From Ruminococcus sp. (GTDB taxonomy: Bacteria; Bacillota; Clostridia; Oscillospirales; Ruminococcaceae): 64,000 nucleotides of DNA. Where the stretch lies: positions 1 to 64,000 of the forward strand of contig JAGAOV010000003.1 in assembly GCA_017623515.1 (NCBI GenBank). The letters run 5' to 3'. The notes beneath the pieces are model-generated. The model did not search any database. It saw only the letters and a list, made by a program, of their open reading frames with translations, and was not told where the DNA came from. How positions within the stretch are numbered: position 1 is the stretch's first letter; every line of letters begins with the position of its first letter. Positions 10,878-21,818 of the stretch are shown here, one piece after another. A program made the position numbers and the translations under genes.

Positions 10878-10957
10878 TTATACTCTCTCCTCTATTATAC
10901 GGCTGATCTCTTCAGCTATTATTTCTCCGGCTGATACCGGTGCAGCTTTTCCTGGAA
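10878..10957 (-). CDS. dpaA: dpaA 3' fragment, separated from its 5' part
   Basis: Immediately upstream of dpaB the minus strand encodes PGKAAPVSAGEIIAEEIS and RIIEERV, then stop, with no start codon. This is the C-terminal end expected of dipicolinate synthase subunit A. The rest of dpaA is at 16060-16856. The fragment begins at TTCC (10957-10954), which is also the last sequence of the dpaA 5' part. Joining the two across TTCC gives codons GGT CTT CCA GGA AAA GCT, that is GLPGKA, in frame, and a 290-residue DpaA. The fragment is not a CDS on its own unless the intervening 5.1 kb is removed. Confidence 0.9.
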
Positions 10958-10976
10958 CGGTTGATGTGGGATGACA
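10940..10976. repeat. Left hybrid attachment site (dpaA 3' / element)
   Basis: The host half carries GTGCA (10940-10944) and the element half carries GGATGACA (10969-10976). The shared core GGAA (minus strand TTCC) is at 10954-10957. The element half-arm is the inverted copy of the arm at the right end. Confidence 0.8.
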
Positions 10977-11050
10977 GATTTTGCTGGCTGTCTTTGATGG
11001 GAACTGAAACTTTACTTTCTGGATGAGATTTAATTGGAGGGGAAAGTTTT

Positions 11051-12319
11051 TTATCGGAGGATTATGCTTATCTCGTTCTCTGTAAGTATTATATTTTTTA
11101 TAAGTATTTTGGCGGCTGCCTTTTTCTGCTCAAAATCAAGCATACCAAAGCCTCTGAACGCCCTGCGCTTTTTATTAGTGAATGGCATTCCGGCAATGGC
11201 ATTCAGTTCCCTGTCCTGTCCTGTTTTCTTGCAGCTTTCCCTCAGAAGTTTCCCCATTTCCTTTTCAAGCACCTGCGCTGCAAACTCCTCCGCCGGCTTC
11301 GTTTTCACTGCGCTAAGTCCCTGACAAATCCCGTTTCTCTTACCACGGCATACGAAATATACATACCTGTCATCTTTGCCGGAGCATCTGACATAACAAG
11401 AATTCCCGCATTTTCCGCACAAAACCAGACCTTGCAGCCATGATTTCTTTCCAGAACCGGAATTTGAGGATGGTTTTCTCTGAAAAATAATATCCTGCGT
11501 TTCAAGCCACATTTCAGCCGGAATAATTCCCTTGTGAGTACCAGCCGCAATGTAGAGAACGTTTCGGCGTTGAATTGTAATGCATCCATTTCCTTTGCAG
11601 TATTCATCGTCACTATGGAGAAGCTTTCCCTTTGACGCAAGATACTTCCGCACTTCCTCATTTCCGGCGGCATATACTGTATTTTTCACTATCCTTGAAA
11701 CCTGCATTCCCGTCCACTTACTGCGGGATGGTGAAGGTTCGTGACGTTTATTAAGCATTGCGGCTGTACTGTCGAAGCTCATGCCGCTTATAACGCATCT
11801 ATATATCTCATGAACCACATCTGCTTCATGGGGACATATCTCCCACTTTTCGTTGTAGCCGTAAGGTCTTATGCCGCCCAGAGGCTTGTGCATTTCGGCA
11901 CGTGCAAGGTAATTGTCACTGATTCTTGCGGAGATGGTTTTCTGTTCCATTTCTGCAAACATTATAAGCAGCTTCACAAGCATTTCACCCATTGGAGTTC
12001 TTGTGTCAAACTGTTCAGAGTAAGATATTAGTTTTACATTTGCGTTATTTAAAACGTCCCATAATTTAGCAAAATCAATAAGTGAACGGGATATTCTGTC
12101 AAGTTTATAAACTACAATACATTTCACATCGCCGTTTTTTATCATACTAAGCATTTTCTGGAATGCAGGACGGCGTGTGTTAGTTCCGCTAAAGCCTTTA
12201 TCCTGAAAGATCTCCCTTTCTGCACTATCAGGTATCAATCTGCTGCAAAGGTCTATCTGCATTTCTATTGAGATTGAATCCTTTTTATCCAAAGACTGTC
12301 GGGCATAAATTGCATACAT
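11051..12319 (-). CDS. Large serine recombinase (SpoIVCA-like)
   Basis: A 422-residue site-specific recombinase. The resolvase domain has the nucleophile Ser9 in YARQSLDKKDS, GFSGTNTRRPAF, and the catalytic arginines of YKLDRISRSL (R75, R78). It is followed by the recombinase domain (about 145-280), a zinc ribbon with Cys301, Cys304, Cys324 and Cys332, and a short C-terminal tail. It is shorter than SpoIVCA (about 500), lacking much of the coiled-coil region. GAGGTG lies six bases before ATG 12319. It sits about 95 bases from the left border, as recombinases of intervening elements usually do. The natural inference is that it inserted the element into dpaA and may excise it; a separate directionality factor was not found. 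Confidence 0.92.
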   Translation of the reverse strand: MYAIYARQSLDKKDSISIEMQIDLCSRLIPDSAEREIFQDKGFSGTNTRRPAFQKMLSMIKNGDVKCIVVYKLDRISRSLIDFAKLWDVLNNANVKLISYSEQFDTRTPMGEMLVKLLIMFAEMEQKTISARISDNYLARAEMHKPLGGIRPYGYNEKWEICPHEADVVHEIYRCVISGMSFDSTAAMLNKRHEPSPSRSKWTGMQVSRIVKNTVYAAGNEEVRKYLASKGKLLHSDDEYCKGNGCITIQRRNVLYIAAGTHKGIIPAEMWLETQDIIFQRKPSSNSGSGKKSWLQGLVLCGKCGNSCYVRCSGKDDRYVYFVCRGKRNGICQGLSAVKTKPAEEFAAQVLEKEMGKLLRESCKKTGQDRELNAIAGMPFTNKKRRAFRGFGMLDFEQKKAAAKILIKNIILTENEISIILR

Positions 12320-12349
12320 AGAATCACCTCAGATAATTCTATGCTTGAA

Positions 12350-12384
12350 TTTAAAAAAAAGGCACTCCCATATAGGGAGTACCT
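12350..12384 (-). terminator. Terminator of the cohesin-like gene
   Basis: On the minus strand GGTACTCCC...GGGAGTGCC is followed by TTTTTTTT. It lies between the anchored protein gene and the recombinase start, so the two are probably separate transcripts. Confidence 0.8.
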
Positions 12385-12432
12385 TTAATTCAGATGTTAA
12401 TCTGTGTTAGTCTTAGTTTCTCTTAGGAGAAA

Positions 12433-13353
12433 TTACTTTCTCTTCTTAGCAACCAGAGCTACGCCACCGATTACAACCAGAGCAGCAGCTGCGCCAGCTA
12501 CCGGCAGAACATCGCCAGTCTTAGGAGACTCTGTAGAGCCCTTCTTAGCTGTTGTTGTAGTTGTAGCCTTTGTTGTAGATGTAGTAGTTGTTGTTGTGTC
12601 AATACCAGACAGCGGGATAGAAGCTGTTGTTGTAGTTGTTGTAGCCTCAGGAGTTGTTGTTGTGGATGTAGTAGTTGTTGTTGTCGGCTCTTCTGTTGTT
12701 GTAGTTGTAGAAGTTGTTGTTGTAGTTGTAGTAGTTGTTGTTTTAGTTGAAGTAGTTGTAGTAGTAGTAGATGTTGTTGTATCCTCACCTGCGATGATGA
12801 TCTGACCGCTTACGAGAGAAGAAGCACTCTTACCATCAGCTGTGTTGATTTCCTGATATGTGTCACCGTTGTTTACGAGAGCTGTCAGGTCATAAACGTC
12901 GCCAGCCTTAGCGTTAGCGTTTACCTTGAATACGATTGTGGAAACGCCGCCGTCCTGAACGTAGTTAATTGTAGAACCAGAAGGAGTTACAGCGTAACCC
13001 AGCCAAAGAATACCCAGATCGTTGTTAATACCAGTACCACGAGCAACGTCATAACCATAATCATTCTGAGCAGACTGAACAGCTGCGCCGTTGATTACTC
13101 TTGAGATTGTTACTTCAGCTACATTGAAGCTAACACCGTAACCCAGAGAATACCAGCCGCCAGAACCAGCTACATCTACAGGAATCTTTACTTCATAGTT
13201 AGCTGCCTGAAGTTCTTCCAGAGTCAGAGTAACAGTACCAACAGTCAGTGTGCCGCCTGCAGCGTTAGCAGGTACAGCAAATACAGCTGCAGAAGCAGCT
13301 ACTACAGCAGCTGCGGAAAGAGCAGCCATGCTCTTCTTAAATGTAGTCTTCAT
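12433..13353 (-). CDS. Sortase-anchored single-cohesin-like surface protein
   Basis: A 306-residue secreted protein: signal peptide (residues 1-31, ending PANA), one beta-sandwich domain of about 155 residues, a Thr-rich linker (about 192-270), and a cell-wall sorting signal with SPKTGD, a hydrophobic stretch and terminal KKRK. The domain has the cohesin pattern: VKIPVDVAGSGGWYSLGYGVSFN early, LGILWLGY in the middle and VSTIVFKVNANAKAGDVYDL near the end. A wall-anchored single cohesin is the layout of R. flavefaciens ScaE, which holds the cellulosome on the cell. It lies downstream of a dockerin protein, like cttA-scaE. AAAGGA is 10 bases before the ATG. Cohesin identity is by pattern and should be tested by structure; the anchor is clear. 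Confidence 0.75.
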   Translation of the reverse strand: MKTTFKKSMAALSAAAVVAASAAVFAVPANAAGGTLTVGTVTLTLEELQAANYEVKIPVDVAGSGGWYSLGYGVSFNVAEVTISRVINGAAVQSAQNDYGYDVARGTGINNDLGILWLGYAVTPSGSTINYVQDGGVSTIVFKVNANAKAGDVYDLTALVNNGDTYQEINTADGKSASSLVSGQIIIAGEDTTTSTTTTTTSTKTTTTTTTTTTSTTTTTEEPTTTTTTSTTTTPEATTTTTTASIPLSGIDTTTTTTSTTKATTTTTAKKGSTESPKTGDVLPVAGAAAALVVIGGVALVAKKRK

Positions 13354-13450
13354 TTTCGAAAATTCCTTTCAAATATAAAATTTATTTTATACAACCGAGC
13401 GCATTTCTCATACGCTCAGTCATATACGTACCACTAATTACTTAAATTAC

Positions 13451-15706
13451 TTATCTTCCAAGAATTGCATCCCAATCAGCGTCAAGACCTGAACCAACAT
13501 ATGCATAGTATGTCAGGATTGCAGTAGCATCTGTAAGGTGGATGCTGTTCTCACCTGCTACATCTCTGCCGTTTGTTGACTCAGTATCAACGTCTGCAAG
13601 GAAGTATGCAAGTCCTTCAAGATTAGGATCATCGTTAAATGATGCATCGAGGGACGCACCAACATTTGCATAGTATGCAAGAACCTTTGTAGCATCATCC
13701 AGTCCTACTGCGCCATCCAGATTAGCGTCACCCTTAACACCAATGTAAACTGTAGGATACTCAATCGGATCAATAGTCATGTTAGTCATGTAGGATGTCT
13801 GGATATTTGCAGGATTGAAGGAAATTGCCAGTGAGCTTGCTACATAAGCTGTACCAGCAACATTGTTGAAGTATTCAGCAGGTGTAGCAAAAGCAGGTGT
13901 CAGGTATGTAGAGAAGTCAGATGCTGCGATCTGGAAGCTCTTAGCTTCGCCGTTGATGTTACCGATCAGTGTCAGCTTGTTGATCAGCTTAGACAGATCG
14001 AATTCGTTCTCATCGTGTGAGAAGTAGTAACCAACGCCGCTCTCAACTTCAATATCCTCAAGAATGAAATCTACAGGGATTTCAGTTGTTGTGGTTGTTG
14101 TACCTGTGCCTGATGTTGTTGTATCAGTTGTGTCTGTAGAAGACTCTGTAGAAACTGTTGTATCTGTAGAGGTCTCAGTTGTTTCTGTAGATGTCTCTGT
14201 AGAATCAGTTGTGTCTGTAGATGTCTCTGTAGAATCAGTTGTATCTGTAGAGGTCTCAGTTGTATCTGTAGATGTCTCTGTGGAAACTGTTGTATCTGTA
14301 GAGGTCTCAGTTGTGTCTGTAGATGTCTCTGTGGAAACTGTTGTTTCTGTAGAGGTCTCAGTTGTGTCTGTAGATGTCTCTGTAGAAACTGTTGTTTCTG
14401 TAGAGGTCTCAGTTGTGTCTGTAGATGTCTCTGTAGAAACTGTTGTTTCTGTAGAGGTCTCAGTTGTGTCTGTAGAGGTTTCTGTAGAAACTGTTGTTTC
14501 TGTAGAAGTCTCTGTGGTATCTGTAGTTGTTTCTGTTGTAGATGTTGTTGTTACTTCTTCTTCCTTGTACTCAATAATTCTTGTTACATCGAAGAATGCA
14601 ACGCCATCTGTTGTCAGGCTAGCTTCAACCAGCTTGGAGGAAGATGCATAAACCATCTTAACGCCTTCATCGTTAACAACAGCATTTTCATTTACCCAAG
14701 CTTCAACTTCAGCTGCTTCAGCATCCGGAATTGTGAAAGATACTTCATATGTACCGCCGCTTACTGCAACATTGAAATCAGAACCAGACTTAGCCAGCTC
14801 AGCTACTGAATCAGCTGTGATGTCGAGAACATAGCCGCTTGTAGAAGCAATGCCGCTTATCAGATCAACAGCCTTATTGAAGCCTGCGCCGTGTCTTGCA
14901 ACAGCCTCGTCAACAGTCTTCGGGAAGTTGTAGATTTCTGTTCTCTTGTCAACGAACTTAGCGATTGCAGCCATCATTTCGTCAGCTGTACCGTATGAAC
15001 CAGTACGCTCCAGAGCTTCTGCTCTGTTGAAAAGTGTTTCTGCTCTCTCAATCTTGTCGATGATCTCGATAGTCATAGCTTCTTCGATAGCAGCGTCAAC
15101 GCCAACCTGTGCGCTTACTTCAGCAGCCAGCTCATCAGCCAGACCCTTGAAATAATCAGCAGCGTTATCCTCATTGACTGCATCGCCGCCAACGCTTACT
15201 GAATAGATAACATCTACAGACTTTCCGTCAGCCAGTACGCTTGCATCAAAAGTAACATAATAGTCAATCTGCTTGCTGAATGCGTTGAGTGTCAGATCCA
15301 TACCAGCAGCTTCTCTGATCTTGGAGTAGATCTTCTTTTCTGCATATGCAGAAAGATCAGCAGTACCCATAACAGTAACAACGCCGTTTTCTACAGTCAG
15401 AACAGGATTAGGAGCGTCTGCCAGAAGTTCTGCCAGCATTACGCCGTATGTGTTTGTCTGCGGGATCAGATTGATGAAATCAGCAGCTGTGATTTCCTTC
15501 TGTGTACCTTCCATGTTCAAGAACATGTTCAGTGCAGCTTCATTCCATCTGGACTCAGTCTGGTCATAAGGAATAGCTGTGAAGGTATCAAGAGTAAGCA
15601 CCTTTGCGCCTGTGTCTTCTGCAGAAACATTCATAACAACACTCTGAGTAAGTGCCATAGGAACAGCAATTGCAGCAGCCAAGACTCTGTTGAAAATCTT
15701 CTTCAT
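13451..15706 (-). CDS. Secreted Thr/Ser/Glu-repeat protein with C-terminal dockerin
   Basis: A 751-residue secreted protein. The start at 15706 follows AGAGGT by nine bases; a TTG two codons upstream is less likely. Residues 1-30 are a signal peptide. Residues 31-385 form an unrecognised region, partly helical. About 390-555 is a tandem repeat with the 17-residue unit STETSTDTTETSTETTV. About 560-655 may be an X-module, and about 660-750 is a dockerin: KGDANLDGAVGLDDATKVL then ADVDTESTNGRDV...SIHLTDATAIL. The second calcium loop has an insertion of roughly nine residues. Position before the anchored cohesin-like gene recalls R. flavefaciens CttA, a substrate-binding protein ending in X-dockerin. 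No catalytic or carbohydrate-binding module was recognised. It lies inside the dpaA element. Confidence 0.75.
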   Translation of the reverse strand: MKKIFNRVLAAAIAVPMALTQSVVMNVSAEDTGAKVLTLDTFTAIPYDQTESRWNEAALNMFLNMEGTQKEITAADFINLIPQTNTYGVMLAELLADAPNPVLTVENGVVTVMGTADLSAYAEKKIYSKIREAAGMDLTLNAFSKQIDYYVTFDASVLADGKSVDVIYSVSVGGDAVNEDNAADYFKGLADELAAEVSAQVGVDAAIEEAMTIEIIDKIERAETLFNRAEALERTGSYGTADEMMAAIAKFVDKRTEIYNFPKTVDEAVARHGAGFNKAVDLISGIASTSGYVLDITADSVAELAKSGSDFNVAVSGGTYEVSFTIPDAEAAEVEAWVNENAVVNDEGVKMVYASSSKLVEASLTTDGVAFFDVTRIIEYKEEEVTTTSTTETTTDTTETSTETTVSTETSTDTTETSTETTVSTETSTDTTETSTETTVSTETSTDTTETSTETTVSTETSTDTTETSTDTTVSTETSTDTTETSTDTTDSTETSTDTTDSTETSTETTETSTDTTVSTESSTDTTDTTTSGTGTTTTTTEIPVDFILEDIEVESGVGYYFSHDENEFDLSKLINKLTLIGNINGEAKSFQIAASDFSTYLTPAFATPAEYFNNVAGTAYVASSLAISFNPANIQTSYMTNMTIDPIEYPTVYIGVKGDANLDGAVGLDDATKVLAYYANVGASLDASFNDDPNLEGLAYFLADVDTESTNGRDVAGENSIHLTDATAILTYYAYVGSGLDADWDAILGR
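14120..14560. repeat. Tandem 51-bp coding repeat
   Basis: Within the dockerin gene a 51-base unit coding the 17 residues STETSTDTTETSTETTV is repeated about eight times with small changes, the later copies (toward the dockerin) more divergent. Such arrays vary in number between strains by slippage. The opposite strand also stays open and gives a false Val/Ser-rich reading frame. Confidence 0.85.
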
Positions 15707-15879
15707 TTCCAATTACCTCTCTTCTTAAATTTTTTTCGTGTTCATGCTGCGCTTACGTGATTGCAATACGCTTCATCCTTTTTTGTACACATCTTTTTGC
15801 TGTATACCTGATGATTGAACACTTAATAAATTCGCCTATGGACACGGTGCATGCGTCACTATAAACGATTTACACAAGT

Positions 15880-15946
15880 ATTTTAACACATTCTGCGAAG
15901 AATGTCAAGTGATACGGATGTTTTTTTTTAAAATTCTTCGCAGAAT
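15880..15946 (-). promoter_or_regulatory. Promoter with two palindromic operator sites (dockerin gene)
   Basis: Minus-strand TTGACA (15908-15903) and TAAAAT (15885-15880) are 17 bases apart. The palindrome ATTCTGCGAAGAAT fills the spacer (15890-15903). The same sequence inverted, ATTCTTCGCAGAAT, occurs at 15933-15946. The two centres are 43 bp apart, about four helical turns. This arrangement suggests a repressor that blocks RNA polymerase, possibly with looping. The remaining 15713-15879 is a leader without other recognised elements. Confidence 0.7.
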
Positions 15947-16038
15947 ATTGTCCTCAATTTTGGTGCATTTTCACAATATTCTCTTATCCGCACTCTTTTT
16001 GTACGTGTCAGAACAGGCTTGTTTTCTTGATTTTTCTT

Positions 16039-16075
16039 TGTCATCCTGTATCTTCCGCCGGAAGACCTGATGCAC
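16039..16075. repeat. Right hybrid attachment site (element / dpaA 5')
   Basis: The element half has TGTCATCC (16039-16046), the host half has TGCAC (16071-16075), and the core GGAA is at 16060-16063. It mirrors the left site at 10940-10976. Confidence 0.8.
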
Positions 16076-16856
16076 TCACATACACAATTTCTCTGCCAGC
16101 CGCCCTTTCCGGCGTAACACCTCCAGAAACCGACGCAAGCTCTACATATGCACATTCAGGCTCTATCCTTTCTATTTCCTTTTCCCCGAATATTTCCGCT
16201 GGAATTGTATTGAATATTATATCAAATCCAAATTTCTCATCCGGATCAAATGGTATTTCTATGACTTCTGCTCCGGCTGCCTCAAGCCTTATACGATCGC
16301 TCCTCTTTCGTGCAGCTGCGGTCACTTTCGCTCCCATGCTGCATAGTCTGTCTGTGAGAAGTGTTCCTATTCGTCCGCCGCCTGTTACAAGCACCCTGCT
16401 TCTCCACATTGTACGTCCAGTGACTTCCATTGCTGTTTTTATCGCACCTTCTGCTGTGGGTACTGCATTTGCCTGTGCGGCGGATGTACTATTTATATAA
16501 TCTATATATTGAATTCCCTTTCTGCCGCATAATTCTTTTACTATTCCTTTGTCATTGCCTCCCAGCACTGCTCCGCCCTCTTTAAGCCGCCCTGCGATCT
16601 CCTCCGGTGATATATCCTCTTCGCCGTATGGTGCCGGTATCATTCCTTTATTATTAACTGTAAGCGGCGGCAGAAACAGAAAATCTGCCTGCTCTCCATT
16701 GACCTCCGCAAGCTGTGATAATGTCCGCTTCCCTTTTCCTGAAAGCTTCCCATCATCAAAGCCCATTATCATAACATCATATTTCCCCGAAAGCTTCTCT
16801 GCCGCATATATCATCCTCAGGTCTCCGCCTGCTGCAAGTATTTTCTGCTTTGCCAT
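16041..16856 (-). CDS. dpaA: dpaA 5' part (dipicolinate synthase subunit A, interrupted)
   Basis: The reading frame gives 271 residues; the first 266, to SASGLP, are genuine DpaA and the last five (AEDTG) come from the inserted element. DpaA has a Rossmann-type NADPH fold; RVLVTGGGRIGTLLTDRL is the nucleotide-binding GxGxxG loop and FDIIFNTIPAEIF follows it as in SpoVFA. Dipicolinate synthase makes the dipicolinic acid that fills the spore core. Start 16856 (MAKQKILAAGG) is chosen because GGAGG stands seven bases upstream; an ATG six codons earlier is possible. The missing last 24 residues are encoded at 10878-10957. As it stands the protein lacks its C-terminus and is probably inactive unless the 5.1-kb element is excised. 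Confidence 0.9.
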   Translation of the reverse strand: MAKQKILAAGGDLRMIYAAEKLSGKYDVMIMGFDDGKLSGKGKRTLSQLAEVNGEQADFLFLPPLTVNNKGMIPAPYGEEDISPEEIAGRLKEGGAVLGGNDKGIVKELCGRKGIQYIDYINSTSAAQANAVPTAEGAIKTAMEVTGRTMWRSRVLVTGGGRIGTLLTDRLCSMGAKVTAAARKRSDRIRLEAAGAEVIEIPFDPDEKFGFDIIFNTIPAEIFGEKEIERIEPECAYVELASVSGGVTPERAAGREIVYVSASGLPAEDTG

Positions 16857-16900
16857 TCTGCGCCCTCCATTCATTCCTTCCTTTTCCTCACGTTTCCCTA

Positions 16901-16930
16901 CATTCTATGCCAGACCGCTTCTATGAGTGC
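16901..16930 (-). promoter_or_regulatory. Possible sigma-K-type promoter of dpaA
   Basis: On the minus strand CATAGAATG (16909-16901) fits the sigma-E/sigma-K -10 pattern CATAnnnTR, and AC within GCAC (16930-16927) lies 17 bases upstream, as in sigma-K promoters. No sigma-A promoter is seen between the upstream terminator and dpaA. spoVF in Bacillus is sigma-K controlled. The match is short and could be chance. Confidence 0.4.
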
Positions 16931-18874: not shown

Positions 18875-20110
18875 TTACTTATTTTGTTCAGCATATTCCA
18901 TAAATGTGCCGTCAAATGCATTTGCGCCCTTTGCGGCATAATAGCCGAGAACCAAGGTTGCGTCTGAAATATCAACTGTTCCGTTCTGGTCAGCATCAGC
19001 TGCCTGTGCATTAACGCCTGTTATCGGAGATTCTGTACCTGCACCGTTTGCAGCATATATGCTCAGTACAGAGGTTGCGTCTGCGATCTCAACAGCACCA
19101 TTTGCATCCACGTCACCATAGCTGTTCTTCATCACCTTGCCCATAATACTATCATTCAGTGCAGAATCAATATTTCCCAGAGTTTTCTCTGCGCCGGAGG
19201 CTGTATATGCCAGACGGAGCTTTGTTCCGTTTTCAGCACCTGTTTCCGGAAGTGCAAGTGCATCAATAATTGTCTCTGCAATAGCAAGATGTCCGATACT
19301 GTTGGGATGTACATCAACCATCTTTATGTCAGTATAATAATATCCATGATCATAGACAGTCTGGAACGTATCTACTACTGTTACACCGGTAAGATCACGT
19401 ATTGCACCATTTACACACTGTCCCTTTGGAAAAGCTGTATTATCTGCAATACCTTCAAGAAATTTATTTACATTGCTGCTTAATATCTCCATAGAACCGC
19501 TGACTGCAAGATCAGTGTCATCAGCATCACAATCCATAGGGTTGTATACTGTCTGGAAAACTATCTTTGCATTGGTAGATGCTTTAAGCTGTTCCGCAAT
19601 AGCTGCAACATTTGATCTGAAATTTGCTATAACTCCCGGCATCGTTTTTGTAAGGTAAAGATTAAACGGTGTCAGAACCGCATAATTCGGTGCACCGGAT
19701 TCAGTTTTAAGACCGGAAATAAGCTGATTCATGCTTTCATACTGAGTCGCATCAATGTAATCATTATTCAGCACTAGCTGAAGAATATCGTTTCCTCCGA
19801 TAGTTACAAGCACAACATCCGCTTCAGCTACTGCTGCCTGTACTGACACATCTGAAAGCTGTTCCAGAAGCCCTGCGCTGGTAAGTCCATCCTGTGCAAA
19901 ACTTGTAAGCTCTGCTCCGTAATAATCGCTAACCATTTCAGCATAGCTTGCAATAAGCGTGCCATCCTTTGAGTATCCGGTTGTAATGCTGTCGCCAAGT
20001 GCTACAATTGACATTGATTCTTCCGCACTTGCTTCTGTGGGAACAGCAGACATCATAAGAGATATTGCCGCAAGTATTGCTGCGGCTCTTTTGAGGTTGT
20101 TCTTTTTCAT
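18875..20110 (-). CDS. Secreted SGNH/GDSL hydrolase with dockerin
   Basis: A 411-residue secreted esterase. Signal peptide 1-29 ends at EASA. The SGNH domain (about 33-290) shows block I GDSITTGYS with the nucleophile Ser, block III GGNDIL and block V DVHPN with the catalytic Asp and His. The C-terminus (about 333-400) is a type I dockerin with two good calcium loops, GDVDANGAVEIADATSVL and ADADQNGTVDISDATLVL. The enzyme would act in the cellulosome, for example removing acetyl groups from plant polysaccharide; the exact substrate is not evident. It has its own promoter and terminator. The start has AAAGGAG upstream. Confidence 0.9.
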   Translation of the reverse strand: MKKNNLKRAAAILAAISLMMSAVPTEASAEESMSIVALGDSITTGYSKDGTLIASYAEMVSDYYGAELTSFAQDGLTSAGLLEQLSDVSVQAAVAEADVVLVTIGGNDILQLVLNNDYIDATQYESMNQLISGLKTESGAPNYAVLTPFNLYLTKTMPGVIANFRSNVAAIAEQLKASTNAKIVFQTVYNPMDCDADDTDLAVSGSMEILSSNVNKFLEGIADNTAFPKGQCVNGAIRDLTGVTVVDTFQTVYDHGYYYTDIKMVDVHPNSIGHLAIAETIIDALALPETGAENGTKLRLAYTASGAEKTLGNIDSALNDSIMGKVMKNSYGDVDANGAVEIADATSVLSIYAANGAGTESPITGVNAQAADADQNGTVDISDATLVLGYYAAKGANAFDGTFMEYAEQNK

Positions 20111-21191: not shown

Positions 21192-21818
21192 TCAATTTAT
21201 GTTATTAAGAAAACCGGGATCATTATCTTCAAAAGTATAGTAATATACTGTTCTCGCATCAAGTTCTTTATTCATGCCAGCACGCCTCATTGCGTAGATC
21301 GTAAGAGCAAGAGCAGCATCATCAATAGTCACATTACCGTCACCGTCAACATCAGCAAGATTCATCTGAAGCTGAGTCATCGGATAATCAATACCTGCGC
21401 CAGTATTTGTGATATACTTCAAAATCGTATCTGCGTCATCAATGCTGATATAATCCTTTTCAGAGTGCAGTACAAGACCGATAGGAAAAACCTGCATCTC
21501 ATTATACAGCTTATCAGCGTCTGCCTGAGTAACCTCGCCGTCCCCGTCAACATCTGCAAGGGCAAGCTGTTCATCTGTAAGCACATAACCCTCAGTCACA
21601 AGATAGCGTGATACCATTGCGGTGTCATGTCCGGTTACTATTCCGTCCATATCTACATCGCCGATTTTACCGAATCCATTTTCAAGATAACCAGCATCAT
21701 CAAAATTTAAAGAATAGTAATATATATTGTTTTCAGTTAGGAATTTCTCCATTCCAGCGCATCGAACAGCATGTGCCTTAGAAATCAGTTCAGCATCATC
21801 TTTGTCAACTTTACCATT
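21192..21818 (-). pseudogene. Dockerin-repeat protein, 5' end lost at a MITE
   Basis: The frame is open from 21818 to the stop at 21192, about 208 codons, and carries four calcium-loop repeats: the frame opens inside one (NGKVDKDDAELIS), then GDVDMDGIVTGHDTAMV with LADVDGDGEVTQADADKLY, and LADVDGDGNVTIDDAALAL near the C-terminus. No signal peptide, promoter or Shine-Dalgarno is present. Directly upstream the frame meets TAA (21821-21819) at the edge of a MITE half-copy, and beyond that comes the terminator of the sugar operon. The first visible repeat is cut in the middle. An internal ATG at 21752 could start a 186-residue product but has no ribosome site. It is best read as the 3' remnant of a secreted dockerin protein gene. 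Confidence 0.75.

What the first reader, a model, noticed from the sequence alone, without database searches (positions are those of the whole stretch)
10878..16856. A spore gene (dpaA) split by a 5.1-kb recombinase-bearing element that could restore it by excision
The sequence shows a dpaA 5' part (16060-16856) ending at GLP and the matching C-terminal 24 codons (10878-10957) directly before dpaB, with 5106 bases between. Both breakpoints carry TTCC. Joining there gives GGT CTT CCA GGA AAA, in frame, and a 290-residue DpaA, close to the roughly 297 residues of SpoVFA. A large serine recombinase lies about 95 bases from one border. From established knowledge, skin elements in sigK and similar insertions in other spore genes are excised in the mother cell by such recombinases. 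I do not recall one described in dpaA (spoVFA) or in a Ruminococcus. It is inference that excision is developmental; the insertion may instead have made the strain unable to form dipicolinate.
Basis: partly seen in the sequence, partly recalled or inferred. Interest (0 to 1): 0.95.

Follow-up and report, generated by a model that had tools for sequence, protein, structure and literature searches.

The report
Spore gene split by excisable element
In gut Ruminococcus bacteria the gene dpaA, needed for the spore chemical dipicolinate, is cut in two at one and the same codon by a small DNA element that carries a recombinase gene and two fibre-adhesion-like genes, and that is likely cut out again when the cell makes a spore.

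Summary
dpaA is cut at its GLP codons; its last 25 codons lie just before dpaB, 5,106 bases away. In 14 of 16 genomes held for this genus both halves flank the same kind of element at the same codon; one (G003) shows only the 5' half, one (G002) has an intact dpaA. The 11 elements seen whole each carry a large serine recombinase, a CttA-like X-dockerin gene and a ScaE-like cohesin gene; no other phage-type gene was seen. The stranded 3' codons are under purifying selection (median dN/dS 0.22), most simply because the halves are read together. The element ends form an inverted repeat round a CC core, and both arms change together between genomes. CATA sits 24-26 bases before the recombinase in 11 of 14 genomes; dpaA has a sigma-K-like AC-N17-CATA in 9 of 16. 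In two other genera dpaA breaks off at the same codon next to recombinases of other lineages (both halves found in one genus). Mother-cell excision that restores dpaA-dpaB is the best explanation. No rejoined copy of a split species, no expression data and no directionality factor were found. It is a new variant of the known sporulation-gene intervening elements.

The parts
16060..16874 (-). dpaA 5' part, up to the CC of the proline codon of GLP; the ORF runs on to 16041 with five foreign residues after GLP
   Evidence: PF16924 E 3e-16; solved relatives 2rir, 3d4o
10878..10955 (-). dpaA 3' remnant, 25 codons plus stop (PGKAAPVSAGEIIAEEISRIIEERV), no in-frame ATG, GTG or TTG upstream in this genome
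10295..10876 (-). dpaB, dipicolinate synthase subunit B
   Evidence: TIGR02852 and NF006161 over cut-off
10956..16061 (-). the intervening element, 5,106 bases
16030..16061 (-). CC core and right arm of the element end (holds GGATGACA), predicted recombinase half site
10954..10985 (-). left arm of the element end (holds TGTCATCC) and CC core, inverted to the right arm, predicted half site
11051..12319 (-). large serine recombinase, 422 aa, Resolvase + Recombinase + zinc ribbon domains, YARQS serine present
12340..12343 (-). CATA, 24 bases before the recombinase start (predicted mother-cell-type -10 box)
   Evidence: in register (24-26) in 11 of 14 genomes
12353..12383 (-). hairpin plus T run between the ScaE-like gene and the recombinase, predicted terminator
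   Evidence: read from the sequence; no terminator scan was run
12433..13353 (-). ScaE-like cohesin protein with LPXTG-like C-terminus, 306 aa
   Evidence: (Gram_pos_anchor below its cut-off)
13451..15712 (-). CttA-like X-dockerin protein, 753 aa (751 from the first ATG), Thr/Ser-rich linker
   Evidence: profile of 7 members hits CttA XDoc 4iu2_B, E 1e-16; CttA_N in 6 of 7 members, not the window's; no hit for the window's protein alone
15880..15908 (-). TTGACA-N17-TAAAAT, predicted sigma-A-type promoter of the two cargo genes
   Evidence: 14 of 15 element 5' ends
16906..16928 (-). AC-N17-CATA, predicted sigma-K-type promoter of dpaA

Best explanation
dpaA is interrupted, at the same codon in 14 of 16 genomes of this genus, by a recombinase-bearing element that is predicted to be excised in the sporulating mother cell, which would rejoin dpaA and bring dpaB back under the dpaA promoter. 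Shown by the calls: the split, the open joined frame, the three core genes, inverted-repeat element ends round a CC core, selection on the stranded 3' codons, and congruence of recombinase and host divergence. Inferred: that the element's own recombinase cuts at the CC core; that a mother-cell sigma factor turns it on through the CATA box; that the two cargo genes (CttA-like, ScaE-like) are expressed in vegetative cells from their sigma-A-type promoter; and that the forespore keeps the split copy, so that the element is inherited.
For: Same split codon with both halves in 14 of 16 genomes, recombinase between. 3' remnant mismatch by codon position 0.279/0.170/0.612 in 14 genomes, 0 of 100,000 column permutations as extreme; median dN/dS 0.22 in the 52 of 91 pairs that could be computed; against 0.628/0.640/0.604 for the 72 bases just inside the element in 11 genomes. 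Element arms match as inverted repeats at 16.8 of 30 positions at offset 0 and at 6.1-9.1 at offsets 1 to 4; own arms beat all 100,000 shuffled pairings. Recombinase against host (dpaB + transporter) distances: Mantel r 0.92, 13 genomes. Y(A/L)RQS serine and a long open frame in 13 of 14 recombinases. CATA 24-26 bases before the recombinase in 11 of 14, at most 4 in 2,000 shuffles; AC-N17-CATA before dpaA in 9 of 16 (G003 at another distance), at most 3 in 2,000 shuffles. The 3' part holds a motif kept in nearly all full-length DpaA listed. Spo0A in 16 of 16 and SpoIVA in 14 of 16 genomes.
Against: No rejoined copy was found: among the 226 DpaA proteins listed by two searches, the closest full-length/split pair is 75.6% identical (P0275, P0268), even though the split cluster matching G004 has 1,125 members; the lists are capped at 120 each and 90% clustering may hide copies. 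No clear directionality-factor gene. The recombinase CATA box has no -35 that I could recognise. Seven of 16 genomes lack AC-N17-CATA before dpaA. Full-length dpaA occurs in proteins nested in the split groups, so the element is dispensable. No sigma factor passes the sigma-K cut-off (nor does any control genome). G006 has a broken recombinase. No expression or read data.
Confidence: 0.86

Rival explanations
1. The insertion simply inactivated dpaA; the halves are relics and the strain makes no dipicolinate.
For: No rejoined DNA was seen. G006 shows decay: recombinase frameshifted with leucine in place of the YARQS serine, joined dpaA without its usual stop, spoIVA in two frames.
Against: Purifying selection on the stranded 3' codons over 14 species, no premature stop in any of the 14 joined frames, co-varying arms, long open recombinase frame in 13 of 14.
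Confidence: 0.06
2. DpaA works without excision: the 5' part is active as it stands, or the 3' part is made as a separate small peptide and complements it.
For: In 6 of 14 genomes an open in-frame ATG lies in the left element arm eight codons before the remnant, and G001 and G005 have in-frame start codons further up. In G004, G006 and G008 the 5' frame runs on for 40-54 codons and shares NCE(K/N)ATK near its end.
Against: The other six of 14, the window's among them, have no in-frame ATG, GTG or TTG before the remnant (in G015 a stop follows the ATG). In 9 of 15 5' parts the frame stops six codons past the junction, proline included, with different residues. The 5' part lacks the (T/S)(A/S)G and preceding residues kept in nearly all of 167 full-length DpaA. 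The DNA behind NCE(K/N)ATK is conserved also where the dpaA frame never reaches it.
Confidence: 0.04
3. An active mobile element that excises now and then in any cell, without tie to sporulation, so that the gene is repaired only in some cells. This overlaps with the best explanation in that excision restores dpaA.
For: Full-length dpaA is scattered among split ones, at least 7 changes on a tree of 70 rows; recombinases of other lineages stand at the same codon in two other genera.
Against: Recombinase divergence follows the host (r 0.92); a CATA box before the recombinase and a sigma-A-type promoter for the cargo suggest separate control; besides the recombinase no phage or transfer gene was recognised.
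Confidence: 0.1

Closest known systems
vfbin, in spoVFB (dipicolinate synthase subunit B) of Bacillus weihenstephanensis KBAB4 (Abe 2013, not read; seen as passages in PMC10747680, PMC4191935, PMC6957869 and PMC5595907)
   Same: Intervening element in the dipicolinate synthase genes, described as excised during sporulation by a recombinase expressed then
   Different: Other subunit gene, described as carrying phage-related genes; here dpaA, adhesion-like cargo, genus-wide
gin, in gerE of Bacillus cereus ATCC10987 (PMC5595907, abstract and one passage)
   Same: Non-phage intervening element in a mother-cell gene, excised by a serine recombinase
   Different: gin has three recombinase genes and the extra factor GirX; here one recombinase and no factor found
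skin (sigK) of B. subtilis and C. difficile; SP-beta in spsM; vrin in spoVR; yin in yabG (passages)
   Same: Split sporulation gene, recombinase inside, joining of the gene by excision
   Different: Described as prophage or prophage-like; target genes differ; larger (recalled)
fdxN element with XisF (NCBIfam NF041201; its biology in Anabaena is recalled)
   Same: Best-scoring NCBIfam relative of the recombinase; programmed excision in a terminally differentiated cell
   Different: 127 bits against a cut-off of 375, so not filed as XisF; nitrogen-fixation gene
CttA-ScaE adhesion pair of Ruminococcus flavefaciens (PDB 4iu2, 2zf9; PMC4266597, passages)
   Same: X-dockerin protein next to a cell-wall-type cohesin protein
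   Different: Here carried inside an element in a spore gene; binding was not tested

Membership tests
Sporulation-gene intervening element (skin-like) | Lies inside a gene of the sporulation programme | tested here: met
   dpaA, dipicolinate synthase subunit A
Sporulation-gene intervening element (skin-like) | Joining at the matching cores gives an open reading frame | tested here: met
   no premature stop in 14 of 14 joined frames; 13 of 14 stop within 20 bases of the dpaB start, G006 runs on
Sporulation-gene intervening element (skin-like) | Encodes a site-specific recombinase near an element end | tested here: met
   the window's is 95 bases from one border
Sporulation-gene intervening element (skin-like) | Recombination directionality factor | tested here: inconclusive
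   the most widely shared short ORFs are antisense to the genes; four short plus-strand ORFs are shared with four other element pieces each, two in the leader and two over the recombinase start, where B. subtilis skr also lies (PMC6957869 passage)
Sporulation-gene intervening element (skin-like) | Excision seen in sporulating mother cells, with a circle | not testable with these tools
   no reads or cultures
Sporulation-gene intervening element (skin-like) | Mother-cell promoter for recombinase or host gene | tested here: inconclusive
   promoter-like motifs only
Prophage | Phage structural or replication genes | tested here: not met
   cargo proteins: no PHROG match; the recombinase alone matches phage integrase families (phrog_95, E 6e-86); gene content
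Large serine recombinase | Resolvase, Recombinase and zinc-ribbon domains, catalytic serine | tested here: met
   PF00239, PF07508, PF13408 over cut-off; YARQS serine (its catalytic role is recalled)
XisF equivalog | NF041201 score over cut-off | tested here: not met
   127.2 bits against 375
CttA / ScaE | X-dockerin protein beside an anchored cohesin | tested here: met
   profiles of 7 members hit 4iu2_B (E 1e-16) and cohesins incl. ScaE 2zf9 (E 5e-9); CttA_N in 6 of 7 members at E up to 1, best 2e-5; the window's own CttA-like protein has no Pfam hit
CttA / ScaE | The two bind each other and cellulose | not testable with these tools
   no binding data

The most novel reading that the evidence does not exclude
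The codon GLP|GK of dpaA is a standing docking site where several serine-recombinase lineages have independently built developmental switches in this bacterial family, and in this genus the switch couples two programmes: the growing cell keeps its fibre-adhesion genes (CttA-like, ScaE-like) inside the spore gene, and the mother cell deletes them in the same cut that turns on dipicolinate synthesis.
Probability: 0.4. Interest if true: 0.88.

Novelty: new variant of a known kind. Interest (0 to 1): 0.82.

Why it matters
If true, it would extend programmed DNA excision in sporulation from a few Bacillus, Geobacillus and Clostridium-type cases to most species of a gut Ruminococcus genus, kept over deep divergence, and to the partner subunit of the enzyme gene that vfbin splits in Bacillus. 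To my knowledge it would be the first such element with cellulosome-type adhesion genes as cargo. Surveys that ask for a full-length dpaA would miss these species and could miscall them as poor spore formers. It offers several recombinases with mapped sites for direct test.

Tried and rejected
Recombinase in IMG/VR viral contigs: a pattern scan gave one stretch and no relative. Rejoined proteins: full-length DpaA occurs inside the split groups (P0007 and P0010 on contigs of about 1.1 kb; P0250, P0252, P0275, P0276, P0285), but among all 226 DpaA proteins listed the closest true full-length/split pair is 75.6% identical; pairs of 97-99% with P0116 are a motif miss, P0116 being full length. They may be species without the element rather than excised copies. 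Directionality factor: no clear candidate. Single origin of all dpaA-resident recombinases: rejected, AU p 1.8e-5. Truncated DpaA alignments in G221 and G073 turned out intact, and nine of ten further recombinase loci of the family fetched have no dpaA nearby. The first dpaA tree lost G002 by a script slip and was redone.

Rows dropped or picked: the tree has 70 rows, hand-picked from the listed proteins and the genomes; G012, G029, P0021, P0295, P0325 were taken out (long or unsure branches), P0294 was not cut by the script, P0001 and P0011 repeat G000 and G011; P0307 was labelled intact by eye. G006 was left out of the recombinase distances and tree (frameshifted).

Literature. spoVFA + recombinase + interrupted: 0 papers. 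dpaA + recombinase + sporulation + excision: 1 (PMC3789822, seen as a listing only). No title or abstract start in these listings, and no passage read, describes an element in dpaA; the library holds open-licence papers only.
Full report
Observation. On the minus strand dpaA starts at 16856 (or 16874) and its homology ends at GLP; the ORF then runs five residues into foreign sequence. The last 25 codons of dpaA and its stop lie at 10955-10878, one base before the dpaB start. Both borders share CC (16061-16060 and 10955-10954), and joining there gives an open frame of 290 residues from MAKQ. The 5,106 bases between hold three long genes, all read in the dpaA direction: a 753-aa dockerin protein, a 306-aa cohesin protein and a 422-aa recombinase.

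Spread in the genus. The window's genome is a 57%-complete assembly of 995,773 bases in 25 contigs, with one PF16924 match. Fifteen further genomes of the genus are held; each has one dpaA match. Eleven of the 16 have both halves on one contig with the element between. In G009, G012 and G013 the contig breaks inside the element and a second contig carries recombinase, remnant and dpaB. That makes 14 of 16 with both halves. G003 shows only the 5' half, diverging at the same codon, with no dpaB or recombinase found. G002 has an intact dpaA directly before dpaB and no recombinase match. Their titles say Ruminococcus sp., uncultured Ruminococcus sp. or Oscillospiraceae bacterium.

Selection on the stranded codons. 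If the 3' codons were a relic, codon positions would vary alike. Over 24 codons in 14 split genomes the mean mismatch is 0.279, 0.170 and 0.612 at positions 1, 2 and 3; none of 100,000 column permutations reached the third-position excess, and the median dN/dS is 0.22 in the 52 of 91 pairs that could be computed. The 72 bases just inside the element give 0.628, 0.640 and 0.604 in 11 genomes. The genomes are related, so the sample is smaller than it looks. In six of 14 genomes, the window's among them, no ATG, GTG or TTG precedes the remnant in frame, so rejoining is the simplest way to have it translated. In six others an open ATG lies in the element arm eight codons upstream, and G001 and G005 have start codons further up, so a separate small peptide stays possible there. 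Of 226 listed DpaA proteins 167 were picked as running through the junction by the first six motif positions; in them the next (T/S), (A/S) and G are kept in 166, 167 and 165.

Recombination sites. Putting the element's two ends side by side gives a site with inverted arms, TGTCATCC...CC...GGATGACA in the window. Arms match at 16.8 of 30 positions on average at offset 0, and at 6.1 to 9.1 at offsets of 1 to 4. Each genome's own left and right arm match better than arms dealt at random between genomes: sum 235, shuffled mean 191, highest of 100,000 shuffles 230. So the two ends have changed together, as expected if one recombinase keeps binding both. CC is the start of the proline codon on which the comparison was anchored; the exact point of cutting is inferred. 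In 9 of 15 5' parts the dpaA frame stops six codons past the junction, inside the arm.

Recombinase. It has Resolvase, Recombinase and zinc-ribbon domains, resembles solved integrases such as TP901-1 and SP-beta YokA, matches the phage integrase family phrog_95, and is a weak XisF match far below that family's cut-off. Its divergence follows that of dpaB and the next gene (Mantel r 0.92, 13 genomes, 0 of 10,000 permutations), which points to vertical descent. G006 is the exception: frameshifted recombinase (189-aa frame) with leucine in place of the YARQS serine, joined dpaA without its usual stop, and spoIVA in two frames. That is decay of sporulation and switch together, or poor sequence.

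Regulation, inferred from sequence. CATA starts 24-26 bases before the recombinase start in 11 of 14 genomes, G004 included, where the recombinase is turned round; 2,000 shuffles never exceeded 4. In the window it follows a predicted terminator. CATA is the -10 core of mother-cell sigma-E and sigma-K promoters (recalled); no -35 was recognised. AC-N17-CATA precedes dpaA in nine of 16, one of them (G003) at a different distance; shuffles at most 3. The cargo has TTGACA-N16-18-TANAAT in 14 of 15 element 5' ends; 300 shuffles at most 1. Spo0A is found in 16 of 16 genomes, SpoIVA in 14 of 16 (not G000 or G007), and a sigma-E/K-type factor in 16 of 16, none over the sigma-K cut-off.

Cargo. The 11 elements seen whole carry the same gene trio (broken frames in G006; one extra ORF in G001). 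Profiles of seven members match the X-module-dockerin of R. flavefaciens CttA (4iu2_B, E 1e-16) and cohesins including ScaE (2zf9, E 5e-9); six of seven match Pfam CttA_N, the window's own protein none. In R. flavefaciens this pair ties the cell wall to cellulose (PMC4266597, passages). In G002 the end of a ScaE-like gene lies directly before the intact dpaA, so the pair may be an old neighbour of dpaA that was captured.

Beyond the genus. Four short alignments were looked at: G221 and G073 are intact, G288 and G031 are split. A recombinase search of the same sample, with ten loci fetched, added G234 and no other. G234 and G288, one genus, are cut at the same codon, with the remnant before dpaB and inverted arms (18 of 30 in each); in G234 the element is 8.8 kb and includes LytR-CpsA-Psr and HAD-type genes and others that look like sugar transport. 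G031, another genus, has the 5' half followed by an inverted recombinase at the contig end; its dpaB match is partial and showed no remnant. On the recombinase tree the 13 of this genus fall together with one database protein of unknown place (P0195), while the other two genera lie apart; the label needs four changes, and one clade for all 16 is rejected (AU p 1.8e-5). The simplest reading is at least three arrivals at this codon.

Gains and losses. Full-length proteins (P0007, P0010, P0250, P0252, P0275, P0276, P0285) sit among split ones; a tree of 70 picked DpaA 5' parts needs at least seven changes. Precise loss is the natural reading given the recombinase-host congruence, but repeated gain is not excluded.

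What is not shown. No rejoined copy of a split species was identified, no transcript, no circle, no clear directionality factor. The claim of mother-cell timing rests on promoter-like motifs and analogy with skin, vfbin and gin (passages and abstract).

Verdict. The element works like the known sporulation-gene intervening elements and meets the three membership features that could be settled by sequence; two stay inconclusive (directionality factor, promoter) and excision itself could not be tested. It differs in target gene, in lacking phage genes other than the recombinase, in its adhesion-like cargo, in its inheritance through most of a genus and in the repeated use of one codon as landing site.

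Noticed in passing
G002:C49 (locus L038), just upstream of the intact dpaA: The end of a ScaE-like cohesin gene lies directly before the intact dpaA, without recombinase; the cargo pair may have been a chromosomal neighbour before it became an element.
   Followed up: partly
locus L141 with L151 (G234) and L112 with L152 (G288): In another genus dpaA is split at the same codon; in G234 the element is 8.8 kb and holds LytR-CpsA-Psr and HAD-hydrolase genes besides the recombinase.
   Followed up: partly
locus L111 (G031): In a third genus the dpaA 5' half ends at the same codon, followed by an inverted serine recombinase at the contig end.
   Followed up: partly
G006 (locus L042): Recombinase frameshifted and without the YARQS serine, joined dpaA without its usual stop, spoIVA in two frames: a possible natural loss of sporulation and switch together, or poor sequence.
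   Followed up: partly
window, minus strand from about 15976 down; element leader of other genomes: A DNA stretch TTGTGaAAAaGCnaCAAAA about 70 bases before the cargo promoter recurs in 9 of 15 element 5' ends; in G004, G006 and G008 the dpaA frame runs through it and ends in a shared NCE(K/N)ATK tail. Function unknown.
   Followed up: partly
window 15880-15945: A palindrome ATTCTTCGCAGAAT in the spacer of the cargo promoter and a like copy just upstream; TTC-N6-GAA stands in the same spacer in G007, G014 and G015. Possible repressor site.
   Followed up: no
window 18875-20110 and 21192-21752: A GDSL lipase with a C-terminal dockerin and a small dockerin protein close to the dpaA locus, so cellulosome-type parts cluster here.
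   Followed up: no
G004 (locus L040): The recombinase is inverted within the element yet keeps its CATA box 25 bases before the start codon.
   Followed up: partly
G000:C1:303180-303497: A second large serine recombinase in the window's genome, away from dpaA.
   Followed up: no
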